Shown here in pieces: positions 4,621 through 52,024 of a stretch of DNA of 64,000 nucleotides (position 1 is its first letter; every line of letters begins with the position of its first letter). The translations under genes were made by a program, and so were the position numbers. Origin of the DNA: Adlercreutzia sp. ZJ141 (lineage in GTDB: Bacteria > Actinomycetota > Coriobacteriia > Coriobacteriales > Eggerthellaceae); assembly GCF_011038965.1 (NCBI RefSeq), contig NZ_JAAKEB010000008.1, positions 1 through 64,000 on the forward strand, read 5' to 3'. Under the pieces are notes generated by a model. That model was not told the DNA's origin. It saw nothing but the letters and a program-made list of their open reading frames with translations, and made no database searches.

Positions 4621-5532
4621 CTACGCCTCCTGCCCGGCCGCATCAGCAACCCACGACGCGCCCGTCCGCGGCGTGTACGAAGCAGCAAACGCCGCCATGA
4701 CGCGCTGCTCGTCTTCAACAGCAAGCCGGTAGTTCGCTGCAAGTGCAACCTGCGTGTCGGCGGGTGTCACTGCAGCGGGATTGATACCCACAGCGGGATT
4801 TACGCACACGGGCAGCGCCTCGGCCCACACAGCGAAATCGGCACGCGTGCCGTGCTTCACGGTTTCGAGCGGGAAAGAAACCGGATCGAGCAGATTGTCG
4901 GTAACGATGTACATGTCGCAGCCAAGACCCGCAAATGACATGTCCTCGAGCGTGTTATTGCCCACCATGAGTACGTCTTTACCGGAAAGACCACACGCAG
5001 CAAGATTCTCGGCGCAGTAGGCGGGTTTGGGCTTTACCGACGTCGAGTTGTCGTAGGTGGTAATGCGCACGAAATCGTTCGCATCGAGCCCTGCCCATTG
5101 CAGGCGCCACACAACAGCACGTGGCGGAAACAGCGGCATCGTGGCAACTATCAGCGGGTAGCCCTTATTCACAAGCGCTCGTACCGCACGGGCAACATTG
5201 GGATCGTTTCCACAGGTCGCGCCCAGCTTGCCGAACTCGGTTTCGTAATAATGATCCAAAAGCGCAGCCCAGTTGGCAGCATCGCGATCGACAAACGAGA
5301 AGAACGTTTCCCAAAACGCCTGGTCATTCGTTTGATCCGACGGACTTTTTATCATCGCCTTGACACCAGCAGACACCGCCGCCGAAAACGTTTGAGCATC
5401 AAACCCGCGAGCAGCCACGAAAGCAGCAAGCGACGTAAAGTACCCTTTAAGGAATTCCTCAATCTCCATCGGCAACAATGTGCCATCTAAATCAAAGAAG
5501 ATGGCGCGATAGGCGCGTTCGGTTGTTTCCAT
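4621..5532 (-). CDS. HAD-superfamily hydrolase
   Basis: 303 residues. Motif I is FFDLDGTLLP near residue 14, with a helical cap domain after it. Motif II is in LIVATMPLFP, motif III Lys in TSVKPKPAYC, and motif IV in VLMVGNNTLEDMSFAG, although GNN replaces the commoner GDS/GDx. These mark a soluble phosphatase-like HAD enzyme; the substrate is not evident. AAGGAG precedes ATG at 5532. It is the first gene of the leftward HAD-tgt-secDF-DUF1292 run and is divergent from the QueH-ApbE gene, with only 53 bp between the two starts. Confidence 0.85.
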   Translation of the reverse strand: METTERAYRAIFFDLDGTLLPMEIEEFLKGYFTSLAAFVAARGFDAQTFSAAVSAGVKAMIKSPSDQTNDQAFWETFFSFVDRDAANWAALLDHYYETEFGKLGATCGNDPNVARAVRALVNKGYPLIVATMPLFPPRAVVWRLQWAGLDANDFVRITTYDNSTSVKPKPAYCAENLAACGLSGKDVLMVGNNTLEDMSFAGLGCDMYIVTDNLLDPVSFPLETVKHGTRADFAVWAEALPVCVNPAVGINPAAVTPADTQVALAANYRLAVEDEQRVMAAFAASYTPRTGASWVADAAGQEA

Positions 5533-5585
5533 GCAAGCTCCTTTGCGAGCGCGTCGTGCATTAGCATCATGTTAGTATAGGAAAC

Positions 5586-7604
5586 ATGCGTAAACCCATG
5601 GAAAACACTACGGAAAAACCCTGCACGGAACGCGTGCTGTTGCATGCATGCTGTGGCCCATGCTCGACCGAGCCAACCCGGCTTTTGCGAACGCGCGGCA
5701 TCGAGCCGACCATCTTTTTCGCCAATTCAAACATCCACCCAAAAAATGAGTACGAACGCCGCTTAGATACCATTCGCACCTTTGCTGAAGATGAGGGAAT
5801 CAGCCTGATCGAAGGTTCCTACGACGCGTCAGCTTGGGAGCGCACCGCGGGGCGTGTAGGTGACGCAGCACATGAACGCTTTGGGCTCATCGCCGATGAA
5901 CACGCCGCCGAATTCGCCCGAACCAAAGACACCGAACGGGCCCACATGAGCAATGTGGCCGTCTCGCGCGACGAGAGCAGCTCGCACGCTAAGGGGCACG
6001 ATGGAAGACACACTGAGGAGCGTGACGCAACCATCGCAGATTGCTCACGCGCAACGGAAGGCGCAGACGATGTCGGTGGCGCTAACGTGCCCGACATATT
6101 CCCCAACCCGCTTGACGACGTGCCAAACGTAGGCGCAACCTCAAGCAGCGCCCGGGAAGCGCGTGCGGCGCGATGCCGAGCGTGCTACCGGATGCGCTTC
6201 GAGGAAGCGGCGCACTACGCTGCAGCGCACGGATTCGACGCGCTGGGAACTACGCTATCGGTAAGCCCCTACCAGCACACGCAGATCATCCGCGAAGAGC
6301 TTGAACGTGCCGCATCGAGCGCTGGCATACGGGCACTGTTTGAGGACTACCGCCCAAGCTATGATGACACCGTGCGTCGCAGCAAGGACGCGGGCATGTA
6401 CCGGCAGAACTACTGCGGCTGCCGCTTTTCCGAGGAGGAAGCCCGCGCCGAGCGCACCTACCGCAAGGTCGAGCGGAAAGCGCACCGTATTGCGGAAAAG
6501 CTCGCCGAAGCCGAGCAGAAGGCGGCATGTGCAAACGAGCCCTACGTTGATCCTGCCTCCCCCAACGGCGCCTTCGTAGCTGACCCCCTGCCCGCGGAAA
6601 GCCTTCCGCGCATACAGATGGAAGCTTCTAACGGAGCGCGTCGCTGCAACTTCAAAGCCTTCGATACCGTAATCGAGCTTATTACCTACGGCAACGCCGC
6701 CACGTGCGAACACGCGTTTTTCGATGCAGTTGACGCATGCCGAGCCTTCGAACGACGGCTTTCCCCGTATCTTCCACATTCTGACATTGCACGCCTGAAC
6801 AAAAGTGCCGGTGAACCGTGTACCATTCACGAACAAACAGCTGAACTGCTGCTCGCGTCAAAGCGCTATTGTGCGAAAAGCAACGGCACGTTCGATATCA
6901 CCATGGGGCCGGTTATCAGCCTGTGGGATTTTCACACTGGCCTCGTTGCTGACGAGCGTGCGTGCGCACGTGCGCTCGAGCATGTGAACTGGCGCAAACT
7001 AAACGTGTTTCGCCTTGGCGGGCAATGGTTTGCCCACCTGGCCGATCCGCATGCATCGGTAAACCTAGGCGGCATCGCGAAAGGCTGGATAGCCGACCGC
7101 CTGGCCGACATCATGATGCGAGAAACAGAAGATGTGCAGGGCATAAGCGTGAACCTCGGCGGCAACGTGCTCGTGCGCGGAGACAAACCTGACGGCAGCG
7201 CGTGGCGCATCGGTATCCGCGACCCACGCGATACGCGCCGCCTGATAGGCGCTGTGCCCGTGCGCAACATGTCGCTCGTAACCAGCGGCACCTATGAGCG
7301 CTGCTTTAAGCGCGATGGCGTGCTGTATCATCACATTTTAAGTACAGAAGACGGCAAGCCCGTGGCCACCGACATCGCTGGAGCAACCGTGGTGGCGCGC
7401 GACTCCATAGACGCCGAAGGGTTTTCCACCACGCTCTTAGCACTGGGGTCTGAACGCGCGTCCCAGTTTGCTCAACGCGAGCCTGCAATTATCGCCGCGT
7501 TCCTGGTAGGCTTCGACGGCTCTGTCATCTCCATCGAAAAAGACGCGCTTGTTCCAAGCGCGCACCCCACCCCACGTACCGAAAAGGACCCCTTGCGAGC
7601 ATGA
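5586..7604 (+). CDS. queH: QueH-type epoxyqueuosine reductase fused to ApbE-type FMN transferase
   Basis: 672 residues. Residues 16-300 are QueH (DUF208): LLHACCGPCSTEP with C22, C23 and C26, then C197 and C200 in RCRACYRMRFEEAAHYAA, and C277 and C279 in QNYCGCRFS. QueH reduces epoxyqueuosine to queuosine in tRNA. A hydrophilic insert lacking family similarity fills about residues 115-195. Residues 356-650 are ApbE-like: FDITMGPVISLW, NLGGIAKGWIADR near 495 and ISVNLGGN, the flavin-transferase signature; no lipobox is present. The two domains are joined in one frame with no stop. The gene overlaps queA by ATGA. ApbE normally attaches FMN to Thr of membrane redox proteins, so its tie to tRNA modification is unexplained. 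Starts at 5586 or 5598 are both possible. Confidence 0.9.
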   Translation: MRKPMENTTEKPCTERVLLHACCGPCSTEPTRLLRTRGIEPTIFFANSNIHPKNEYERRLDTIRTFAEDEGISLIEGSYDASAWERTAGRVGDAAHERFGLIADEHAAEFARTKDTERAHMSNVAVSRDESSSHAKGHDGRHTEERDATIADCSRATEGADDVGGANVPDIFPNPLDDVPNVGATSSSAREARAARCRACYRMRFEEAAHYAAAHGFDALGTTLSVSPYQHTQIIREELERAASSAGIRALFEDYRPSYDDTVRRSKDAGMYRQNYCGCRFSEEEARAERTYRKVERKAHRIAEKLAEAEQKAACANEPYVDPASPNGAFVADPLPAESLPRIQMEASNGARRCNFKAFDTVIELITYGNAATCEHAFFDAVDACRAFERRLSPYLPHSDIARLNKSAGEPCTIHEQTAELLLASKRYCAKSNGTFDITMGPVISLWDFHTGLVADERACARALEHVNWRKLNVFRLGGQWFAHLADPHASVNLGGIAKGWIADRLADIMMRETEDVQGISVNLGGNVLVRGDKPDGSAWRIGIRDPRDTRRLIGAVPVRNMSLVTSGTYERCFKRDGVLYHHILSTEDGKPVATDIAGATVVARDSIDAEGFSTTLLALGSERASQFAQREPAIIAAFLVGFDGSVISIEKDALVPSAHPTPRTEKDPLRA

Positions 7605-38630: not shown

Positions 38631-40001
38631 ATGGAATTACAACGGAAGATATACGCCAAAATCCAGAGATGGAAAGAGGAATCCCAGGGGTCTCGCGCTC
38701 TTCTAATAGAAGGCGCCCGGCGCGTGGGGAAATCAACCATAGCTGAACGTTTCGCGCAAGAGCAATATCGCTCATACATCCTCGTTGATTTCAACAAGGC
38801 TCCTAAGAGCATGCGTGACAACTTCGAAAACATCGACCAGCTTGATATTTTCTTCCAAAACCTCTCATTGCACTACAACACCCGTCTCTATCCTCGGGAA
38901 TCCCTCGTCATTTTCGATGAGATCCAGCGTTTCCCTAAAGCCCGAGAGGCCATAAAGTACCTGGTAGCTGACGGCCGGTTCGATTTCCTTGCAACAGGAT
39001 CCCTTATCTCCATTCGCGAGAACGTCGAGGGAATCACGGTGCCCTCAGAGGAGCGTAAGATCAAGATGCACCCGTTGGATTTCGAGGAGTTCGCCCATGC
39101 GCTCGGTGAGGAGATGCTTATCGAGCACATCCGTGGCTGCTGGGAGAAGCGCACGCCGCTCGCCCGACCGCTTCACGAGCGCGCGATGCGACTGTTCAAG
39201 GAATACCTCCTTGTAGGTGGCATGCCGAGAAGTGTTGTCGCGTACGTGGAGGGTAATCGCGATTTCTATGCCGCAGATGTCGAGAAACGGGATATCCTCG
39301 AACTGTATCGGGACGACATCAAGAAGGCGGCGAGACGGTACAGCTCCCGCGTTTCAGGGCTCTTCGATCAGATTCCGGGGTACCTCTCGGCCCACGACAA
39401 GAAGGTGGTTCTGAGCGCCATCAATTCTGACGGGCGCTTCAGTGAATACGATGACCCTCTGTTCTGGCTGGGCGATTCAATGATATGCAACCTGTGCTAC
39501 CGGACGACCGACCCCAATGTGGGGTTTGCTCTCACTGCGGACGCCTCCTCCGTGAAATGCTACCTTGGCGACACCGGCCTTCTGGTCAGCCATGCGTTCA
39601 GCGAGAACGAAATCACTGAGTCGCAGCTTTACCGCGAGATCATGGAGGGGAGGCTCGCGTTGAACAAAGGCATGCTCTACGAGAATATGATCGCCCAGAT
39701 GCTCACCGCTATCGGGAAGAAGCTGTACTACTACTCCCGCTACAGCAAGGAGAAACACCGTAACGACGTGGAGATAGACTTCCTCCTCTCGAACGGGAGC
39801 AAGACAGGGTTCAAGGTGTTCCCAGTCGAGGTGAAGTCGTCGAAGAACTACAGCGTAGTCTCGCTTGGAAAGTTCAGGGAACTTTACCCGAAGCGGATAG
39901 CCGAATCGTTCATTGTTCACCCGAAACCGTTGTTACGGGAGGAGGGGCTAACCAGGATTCCCCCATACATGGTGTTCTGTGCGTTCGATCAACCGCAGTA
40001 G
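38631..40001 (+). CDS. AAA_14 / DUF4143 ATPase
   Basis: 456 residues from ATG 38631 (GAGGT upstream). N-terminal AAA domain: ALLIEGARRVGKSTIAERFA (Walker A), SLVIFDEIQRFPKAREAIKY (Walker B), FDFLATGSLISI (sensor). The middle has HPLDFEEFAHALGE and EYLLVGGMPRSVVAYVE, and the C-terminal DUF4143 region resembles a nuclease fold (DVEIDFLLSNG, then FPVEVKSSKNY: D and E-x-K). These ATPases are widespread, of unknown function, and often occur alone on the chromosome. Two are present in this window (see 50543). Confidence 0.9.
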   Translation: MELQRKIYAKIQRWKEESQGSRALLIEGARRVGKSTIAERFAQEQYRSYILVDFNKAPKSMRDNFENIDQLDIFFQNLSLHYNTRLYPRESLVIFDEIQRFPKAREAIKYLVADGRFDFLATGSLISIRENVEGITVPSEERKIKMHPLDFEEFAHALGEEMLIEHIRGCWEKRTPLARPLHERAMRLFKEYLLVGGMPRSVVAYVEGNRDFYAADVEKRDILELYRDDIKKAARRYSSRVSGLFDQIPGYLSAHDKKVVLSAINSDGRFSEYDDPLFWLGDSMICNLCYRTTDPNVGFALTADASSVKCYLGDTGLLVSHAFSENEITESQLYREIMEGRLALNKGMLYENMIAQMLTAIGKKLYYYSRYSKEKHRNDVEIDFLLSNGSKTGFKVFPVEVKSSKNYSVVSLGKFRELYPKRIAESFIVHPKPLLREEGLTRIPPYMVFCAFDQPQ

Positions 40002-50542: not shown

Positions 50543-51910
50543 TTAGTCTTCGATACCCGTTTGGGTAATACAAAACGCAGCATAAAGAGGAAGACTCCGC
50601 AGAAGTGCGCCCGACTCGCCCACGGGCTCGATGCCAAAGTTGGCTTCCGATAGCCGAATCGCATAAGGAGCATGTCCTTCTTCCATAAACTTGCGCAGGC
50701 TTTTCGCCTTGACATTTCGTGCCGACTTCACTTCAACGGGAATAATCTGCGCACGGCGATTCTGAAATACAAAATCTATCTCCCCATTCCCTACTTTACC
50801 GGACGGCATCCAATAGAACGTCTTCACCTCGTTGGCTGTTAGCGCTTGCATAACGTAGTTCTCCGCCAATGCCCCCCGAAAATCGGAGGCCAGCGTCGAG
50901 CGCAACTCATCATCAAGAAATAGCGCGGCGTCGATACCGAACTTAAAGAACATGAGACCCGTGTCTGCGACGTACACCTTAAAATAGCTTCCTTCCTCAT
51001 CGTTGAAAGGCGCAAGGGGAGCCCGATCATCACGAGTCAGATCGTTGATTGTCACAATTCCTGCGGCATTAAGCCACTCCAGAGGCTCAAGCAAACGCTC
51101 TCGGCGGCCGCCACGCACAACTTCAGCATATTTAAACTTCTTCGTTGACGCCCGTAAAAGCTGTTTGGGCAGGCTATCCCAGATTCGCTTAGCCGATATA
51201 CCACTGATACCGTTATCCGGATCGGTCATATCGGCAGTATAGGTTCCGTTTATTTCTGCCTGGATTTCGACAGCTGAGACAAAGGTCATATCCTGACGAT
51301 AGACATCTAAAACCTTCGGCATACCGCCCAGCACCAAGTATCGACGATACAACTCAAGGGCTCGATCATGTCGCACATAGGGTCTCCCCGTAACCGCATG
51401 AGCCCGAATATCACTGGCCATAGCGTGTTCTCCGAGCGCCCAAAGGTACTCCTCAAAATCGAGAGGTTGGAGCTCAAGCTGAACCACATCCGAAGGGAAC
51501 GGTAGGTGTCGACGCTTCGTAGTAACCCCCAGCAAGCTGCCTGTCGCAAGCACACGCCACGACGATCCGGCAAAGAAGCGGAGTGAATTAAGAGCCTGCT
51601 CGCAAAGCTGTATTTCATCCAGAATAATAAGCGTTGTTTCGGGTCGAATTGCAGTGCCCTTGTATTCGGAAATGCGCGCGACTAGTCCGTCAACATCGTC
51701 AGTAGGCCAATCGAACAGCGCGCTCGCACGTACCAAGTCCGTTTGGAAATCGAGTTTGACAAATCCATCCTCAAACAGCTCGCGTCCCATATATTCCGCG
51801 AGAACCGTTTTTCCAACTCTTCGGGCACCCTGAATAAGCAGTGGGCGTGAGCCGGTATTTTGAGCCCACCTGCGCACTGCACCTTCAAGCTTGCGCTTCA
51901 TATAATTCAT
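50543..51910 (-). CDS. AAA_14 / DUF4143 ATPase beside a 62-bp palindrome
   Basis: 455 residues; GGAGG lies six bases before ATG 51910. Walker A PLLIQGARRVGKTVLAEYMG, Walker B TTLIILDEIQLCEQALNSLR, sensor WRVLATGSLLGV, then LQPLDFEEYLWALGE, YLVLGGMPKVLDVYRQ, and a C-terminal nuclease-like fold (GNGEIDFVFQNR, IIPVEVKSARN with D and E-x-K). Same family as 38631-40001. It is the only gene downstream of the palindrome at 51963-52024 on its strand, 53 bp before its start, so the palindrome is a likely part of its promoter or its own target. Confidence 0.9.
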   Translation of the reverse strand: MNYMKRKLEGAVRRWAQNTGSRPLLIQGARRVGKTVLAEYMGRELFEDGFVKLDFQTDLVRASALFDWPTDDVDGLVARISEYKGTAIRPETTLIILDEIQLCEQALNSLRFFAGSSWRVLATGSLLGVTTKRRHLPFPSDVVQLELQPLDFEEYLWALGEHAMASDIRAHAVTGRPYVRHDRALELYRRYLVLGGMPKVLDVYRQDMTFVSAVEIQAEINGTYTADMTDPDNGISGISAKRIWDSLPKQLLRASTKKFKYAEVVRGGRRERLLEPLEWLNAAGIVTINDLTRDDRAPLAPFNDEEGSYFKVYVADTGLMFFKFGIDAALFLDDELRSTLASDFRGALAENYVMQALTANEVKTFYWMPSGKVGNGEIDFVFQNRRAQIIPVEVKSARNVKAKSLRKFMEEGHAPYAIRLSEANFGIEPVGESGALLRSLPLYAAFCITQTGIED

Positions 51911-51962
51911 CGGGCACCTCCACCACCGCGAACTCTTTTACCCCATTATACCCGTGCTAGCA

Positions 51963-52024
51963 AATTTCGTGTACAAGCTGTACACGAAATTCCGGAATTT
52001 CGTGTACAGCTTGTACACGAAATT
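51963..52024. repeat. Perfect 62-bp palindrome built of four AATTTCGTGTACA units
   Basis: AATTTCGTGTACA (51963-51975), AGC, its complement (51979-51991), CCGG, AATTTCGTGTACA (51996-52008), GCT, its complement (52012-52024). Both halves are themselves palindromes with a 3-nt centre, and the whole is self-complementary without a mismatch. Adjacent to the DUF4143 ATPase gene and also between it and the tetR gene. Confidence 0.95.

What the first reader, a model, noticed from the sequence alone, without database searches (positions are those of the whole stretch)
51963..52024. Perfect 62-bp palindrome of four AATTTCGTGTACA units next to a DUF4143 ATPase
Two 29-bp palindromes in inverted order make one larger palindrome with no mismatch. 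Such symmetry is under selection or freshly made. It is 53 bp upstream of the ATPase start, the family is of unknown function with a nuclease-like C-terminal fold, and long palindromes are normally lost. A protein binding both dyads as a tetramer, or cruciform cutting by the ATPase itself, would explain it.
Basis: partly seen in the sequence, partly recalled or inferred. Interest (0 to 1): 0.78.

Follow-up and report, generated by a model that had tools for sequence, protein, structure and literature searches.

The report
Self-specific operator repeats before DUF4143 ATPases
The perfect DNA palindrome is one case of a general pattern: many genes for a very common, uncharacterised ATPase-nuclease (a suspected anti-virus protein) carry their own private set of evenly spaced repeats at the promoter, most likely the site where the protein switches its own gene off.

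Summary
The 62-bp palindrome is real and exact: two 29-bp dyads, half-sites repeating every 33 bp. It lies at -114 to -53 of an AAA_14/DUF4143 (PADLOC PDC-S01) ATPase gene, just upstream of a TATAAT box. It is not a quirk of this locus. Orthologues (91 to about 50% identity; Eggerthellaceae, Atopobiaceae, Chloroflexota) mostly keep related dyads there; the dyads are better conserved than the gene, and DNA similarity to relatives stops at or just past the palindrome's outer edge. A DNA-only pattern scan of 398 Coriobacteriia genomes hit 17 loci besides the window's; 14 abut an orthologue of this ATPase. More distant DUF4143 genes carry different repeats, with a period of 32-33 bp in one protein clade and 23 bp in another; the period splits the protein tree with a single change (0 of 500 shuffles as low). 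The large palindrome itself is not conserved, the neighbouring TetR gene is not linked, and some clades use direct repeats, which argues against cruciform cutting. Best explanation: the ATPase binds its own operator as an oligomer, probably through its winged helix, and represses its own promoter. Binding is inferred, not shown. I found no published description in the open-access library searched.

The parts
51963..52024 (.). 62-bp perfect palindrome: two 29-bp dyads, proposed autogenous operator (-114 to -53)
   Evidence: conserved in orthologues
51996..52024 (.). distal dyad AATTTCGTGTACA-GCT-TGTACACGAAATT
51963..51991 (.). proximal dyad AATTTCGTGTACA-AGC-TGTACACGAAATT; would overlap the -35 region
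51945..51950 (-). candidate -10 box TATAAT, 40 bp before the start codon
   Evidence: exact TATAAT match; consensus match only
51917..51921 (-). candidate ribosome-binding site GGAGG
   Evidence: read from sequence
50543..51910 (-). AAA_14/DUF4143 ATPase-nuclease, 455 aa, PDC-S01 family
   Evidence: Pfam, PADLOC, AlphaFold2 pLDDT 91.9, fold comparison
51443..51847 (-). AAA_14 ATPase domain, residues 22-156 (Walker A G28..T35, Walker B D98 E99)
51065..51127 (-). winged-helix region with putative recognition helix, residues 262-282
   Evidence: secondary structure; covariation hint, not reproduced by a second measure
50726..50863 (-). PD-(D/E)XK-like nuclease residues E350, D379, E393, K395
   Evidence: E350, E393, K395 invariant in 71 homologues, D379 D or E

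Best explanation
The palindrome is the autogenous operator of the ATPase gene. The STAND-like ATPase, probably through its winged-helix domain (inferred), binds the four half-sites, two per dyad, with dyads 33 bp (about three helical turns) apart on one DNA face. It forms an oligomer over the -35/-10 region and represses its own promoter (inferred). The repeats and the one gene travel as a unit of about 1.5-1.7 kb. Paralogues in one genome have different repeat sequences, so they should not cross-regulate (inferred). The period (33 or 23 bp) is set by the protein clade. The end function is probably anti-phage or anti-plasmid nuclease activity held off until needed (inference from the PDC-S01 label and the intact ATPase and nuclease residues).
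For: Shown: dyads at orthologues 91 to about 50% identical; reciprocal DNA-only scan finds orthologues at 14 of 17 non-window loci, reversed control 1 genome; non-coding dyads more conserved than the unit (91 vs 82%, 87 vs 72%, 87 vs 69%) and similarity ends at or within 14 bp of the palindrome edge; no linked gene conserved, TetR excluded; repeat enrichment 51 vs 8% of upstreams; 32-33 bp peak, 24 of 83 vs 4 of 146; 23-bp period in another clade; period splits the protein tree with one change, 0 of 500 shuffles as low; sites abut or straddle the -10 in several relatives; dyad found nowhere else in the own genome; winged-helix-containing STAND-like fold.
Against: No binding or expression data. 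About half of sampled homologues show no detectable repeat. Residue-level covariation is not robust. Three orphan dyads without an ATPase remnant show sites can persist, or serve something, without the gene. Activation rather than repression is not excluded.
Confidence: 0.7

Rival explanations
1. The repeats are binding sites of an unlinked host regulator, or of the adjacent TetR protein, not of the ATPase.
For: A TetR gene lies next to the palindrome, and TetR proteins often bind palindromes (own knowledge).
Against: No TetR relative at the 80 homologous loci and no orthologue in the family genomes searched. Repeat sequence and period change with the ATPase clade, and the unit keeps its repeats across phyla; a host factor would have to change in step.
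Confidence: 0.1
2. The repeats are the DNA target of the ATPase-nuclease itself: a site for cutting, self-propagation, homing or exclusion of related copies, with regulation secondary.
For: Intact nuclease residues; the unit is present or absent as a block in one genus; orphan sites exist.
Against: Sites stay intact next to an intact gene; no end repeats or target duplication; within genera the locus is inherited in place; placement around the -10 suits regulation.
Confidence: 0.12
3. The repeats are transcribed as an RNA antitoxin or guide, as in type III toxin-antitoxin arrays.
For: Tandem repeats directly before an effector gene, with family-specific sequence and period; up to five or more units in L195.
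Against: In the window and many relatives the dyads lie upstream of the best -10; most are perfect or near-perfect dyads; the protein fold is an ATPase-nuclease, not a small ribonuclease.
Confidence: 0.05
4. The palindrome is a recent local duplication or neutral accident.
For: The two dyads are nearly identical.
Against: Two or three dyads at the same spacing persist in relatives whose proteins are 50-91% identical, with conservation above that of the gene.
Confidence: 0.02

Closest known systems
PDC-S01 (PADLOC phage defence candidate, single gene; AAA_14/DUF4143)
   Same: The ATPase is a member by HMM; ATPase fused to a PD-(D/E)XK domain as described for PDC-S01 in PMC12988326.
   Different: No upstream iterons are mentioned in the passages read; defence function is untested there and here.
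RptR-controlled defence-island promoter (PMC12255303)
   Same: Three short repeats over the promoter of a defence locus, bound by an autoregulating repressor.
   Different: RptR is a separate 9-kDa protein with a 6-bp palindromic core; here no small regulator is linked, the repeats are longer with a 33- or 23-bp step, and differ between paralogues.
Autogenous toxin-antitoxin operators
   Same: Works like them: repeated dyads over a promoter, product-specific, negative feedback (own knowledge).
   Different: Here the effector itself would have to be the repressor.
Archaeal STAND/MNS ATPases SSO1545 (2fna) and PAB2304 (2qen)
   Same: Closest solved folds for residues 1-325 (Z 14.4 and 16.2).
   Different: The window protein adds a C-terminal nuclease-like domain; whether those genes have upstream repeats was not examined.

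Membership tests
PDC-S01 / AAA_14-DUF4143 ATPase | AAA_14 and DUF4143 domains over the Pfam cut-offs and PADLOC PDC-S01 profile match | tested here: met
   Pfam 68 and 70.9 bits against cut-offs 27 and 28.1; PADLOC E 9e-119
PDC-S01 / AAA_14-DUF4143 ATPase | Walker motifs and PD-(D/E)XK-like residues intact | tested here: met
PDC-S01 / AAA_14-DUF4143 ATPase | Anti-phage activity | not testable with these tools
   candidate label only; [quoted passage not shown]
STAND / NB-ARC-like ATPase | Nucleotide-binding, helical and winged-helix module fold | tested here: met
   residues 1-325 on PAB2304, SSO1545, CED-4 and NLRs, Z 12-16
Autogenous operator | Sites confined to the gene's own promoter and conserved with the gene | tested here: met
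   three orphan sites in other genomes are exceptions
Autogenous operator | Bound by the gene's own product with an effect on expression | not testable with these tools
   needs EMSA and reporter assays
Type III toxin-antitoxin (toxIN-like) | Repeats transcribed ahead of a small ribonuclease toxin | tested here: not met
   dyads lie upstream of the best -10 in the window; protein is an ATPase-nuclease of STAND-like fold; transcript start itself not mapped
Transposon or MITE ends | Inverted repeats at both ends and a target duplication | tested here: not met
   repeats on the promoter side only; occupied/empty site pair L241/L255 shows no target duplication

The most novel reading that the evidence does not exclude
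DUF4143/PDC-S01 proteins are a large family of single-gene, self-recognising ATPase-nucleases in which one protein is sensor, autorepressor and nuclease. The winged helix and a clade-fixed oligomer step (23 or 33 bp) read a private DNA address, and leaving that address (by titration or ATP state) is what activates the nuclease against invaders or rival copies.
Probability: 0.15. Interest if true: 0.85.

Novelty: new variant of a known kind. Interest (0 to 1): 0.64.

Why it matters
PDC-S01 is reported as the fourth most common defence system across prokaryotes, with almost 40,000 copies detected and validation pending (PMC12988326). A private operator with a fixed step before many of these genes gives a concrete DNA ligand for each protein, a regulation hypothesis that any molecular lab can test, and a simple explanation of how a genome can hold 15 paralogues without cross-talk.

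Tried and rejected
TetR operator: rejected, TetR neither linked nor conserved. Cruciform or large-palindrome function: the whole palindrome is not conserved and direct-repeat clades exist. RNA antitoxin array: dyads lie upstream of the -10. Transposon ends: no 3' repeat or target duplication seen. Residue-level covariation: the first measure peaked at residues 262-278 (permutation p about 0.05), but a motif-only measure moved the peak, so it is not counted as proof. Orphan dyads as ATPase relics: no remnant found, unresolved. phmmer against PDB found nothing; the fold comparison did. NCBIfam gave no family. Searches for DUF4143, AAA_14, SSO1545, COG1373/PF13635/PF13173 and PDC-S01 found no paper on upstream repeats, but only an open-access library was searched, and the AAA_14 search was swamped by unrelated text.

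Full report
Observation. The 62-bp palindrome at 51963-52024 is exact, with 31-nt arms and no spacer. It consists of two 29-bp dyads, AATTTCGTGTACA-AGC-TGTACACGAAATT and AATTTCGTGTACA-GCT-TGTACACGAAATT, joined by CCGG. It covers -114 to -53 of a 455-aa gene on the minus strand (50543-51910) that matches AAA_14 and DUF4143 and the PADLOC PDC-S01 models. A TATAAT lies at 51945-51950 and a GGAGG at 51917-51921. In the 2.29-Mb genome the core TTTCGTGTACA occurs seven times, four of them here, and no other full dyad was found.

The dyads belong to the gene. 80 homologous loci were fetched from public genomes. Upstream of orthologues from 91 to about 50% identity lie one to three related dyads, typically with a 33-bp period; a few members (L066, L069-L071) show only weak or single sites. 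This holds in Slackia, Enterorhabdus, Ellagibacter, Thermophilibacter and in Chloroflexota (Flexilinea). DNA similarity between the window and its relatives runs from the gene to the palindrome's outer edge and stops at or just past it (52038 with L058; 52025 with L059 and L060). The non-coding dyads are more conserved than the whole aligned unit: 91 vs 82%, 87 vs 72% and 87 vs 69%. The adjacent TetR gene has no relative at those loci and only distant generic TetR matches in the family genomes searched.

Reciprocal test. A scan of 398 Coriobacteriia genomes with the DNA pattern alone hit 18 genomes (reversed-pattern control: 1). Of 17 loci other than the window, 14 stand immediately before an orthologue of the window's ATPase. 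Three (L024, L025, L225) are orphans; no ATPase remnant lies at them.

Family-wide pattern. The own genome holds 15 DUF4143 matches. Several of these genes have their own, different repeats just upstream: TCCTCGAAAATGAA x3 (L011) and TCCTCGAAAAACACG x3 (L014), 23-bp step; GGTTGGAAAgATCC x4 (L012) and GACTAGCAAAATTG x2 (L016), about 33-bp step. Across 78 homologues, 51% have a repeat score of 12 or more in the 140 bp before the start, against 8% of 146 control genes from the same loci. Direct-repeat offsets pile up at 32-33 bp: 24 of 83 loci against 4 of 146 controls (Fisher p about 1e-8). At least two of those four controls are DUF4143 genes themselves: L104 is the start of another family member, and L136 carries the repeats of the paralogue fetched as L169. 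A third, L124, is a duplicated copy of its ATPase's promoter region. The fourth, L121, looks like the same promoter region read from the other strand (inference). Paralogues from 12 genomes of other lineages show a second period, 23 bp, with multiples. L195 has at least four tandem 23-bp units.

Period follows protein clade. On a tree of 139 proteins, the 38 genes with 33-bp and the 15 with 23-bp repeats separate with a single change, against 13.2 in shuffles (0 of 500 as low). The branch has support 80, it is a quick tree with long branches, and 86 rows without a called period are not counted. A spacing that is inherited with the protein is what one expects if the protein itself reads it.

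Protein. AlphaFold2 gives a confident model (mean pLDDT 91.9). Residues 1-325 align with the archaeal ATPases PAB2304 (Z 16.2, rmsd 4.6, 268 residues) and SSO1545 (Z 14.4, rmsd 4.9, 271 residues), then CED-4 and plant NLRs: a nucleotide-binding, helical and winged-helix module. Walker residues and the nuclease-type E350, E393 and K395 are invariant in 71 homologues, with D379 D or E. A covariation scan between motif similarity and local protein similarity peaked at residues 262-278, the putative recognition helix. Permutation gave p about 0.05, and a motif-only variant did not reproduce it. I treat this as a hint only.

Unit. Four species of one genus carry the ATPase and its dyads at one syntenic site. 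Two relatives, G334 and G376, lack it there as a block of about 1.7 kb. No target duplication or end repeats are visible. Gain and loss cannot be told apart. Between species of that genus a stretch just outside the dyads is not alignable while the dyads are.

Mechanism. Shown: private, conserved, promoter-proximal repeats whose step depends on the protein clade. Inferred: the ATPase binds them, the winged helix makes the contact, the outcome is repression, and release accompanies activation of a DNA-targeting nuclease. The sites abut or straddle the -10 in several relatives, which suits a repressor better than an activator.

What is known. PDC-S01 is reported as the fourth most common defence system across prokaryotes, structurally an ATPase fused to a PD-(D/E)XK member, with experimental validation pending (PMC12988326), and as the most frequent individual locus in rumen genomes (PMC13356809). 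RptR is a recent example of repeats in a defence promoter bound by a separate small repressor (PMC12255303). In the open-access library I found nothing on repeats before DUF4143 genes; closed literature was not searched. The finding is therefore an autogenous-operator architecture in a new carrier: a new variant, not a new category.

Limits. About half of the sampled homologues have no detectable repeat. The homologue sample is biased towards the window's protein, and the 12-genome survey is not an unbiased census. Promoter elements are consensus calls. Start codons of distant homologues were chosen by rule. No binding or expression data exist.

Noticed in passing
window 38637-39983 (+): A second DUF4143 ATPase in the same window (33% identical to the first); no periodic repeat was found before its start.
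   Followed up: partly
L225 around 1465-1525 and 1631-2393 (G065): An orphan pair of the same dyads stands upstream of a RelB-like antitoxin and PIN toxin pair, about 4 kb from that genome's own copy of the ATPase.
   Followed up: partly
L124 4540-4683 (Treponema): The ATPase's repeat-bearing promoter region occurs a second time downstream, in front of an unrelated ORF (4684-5586): a duplicated promoter or a second controlled gene.
   Followed up: partly
L024 1565-1765 and elsewhere in G017: GCCAYATCCTCG occurs 29 times in that genome in small clusters of alternating orientation, like a REP-type dispersed repeat; one cluster lies next to the orphan dyad.
   Followed up: partly
L033, L034, L036: Some orthologues carry one in-frame TAG, so they look like recent pseudogenes or stop-codon readthrough.
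   Followed up: no
L255, L256 versus L241: Occupied and empty versions of one site for the ATPase-plus-dyads unit (about 1.7 kb) within one genus, with no target duplication.
   Followed up: yes
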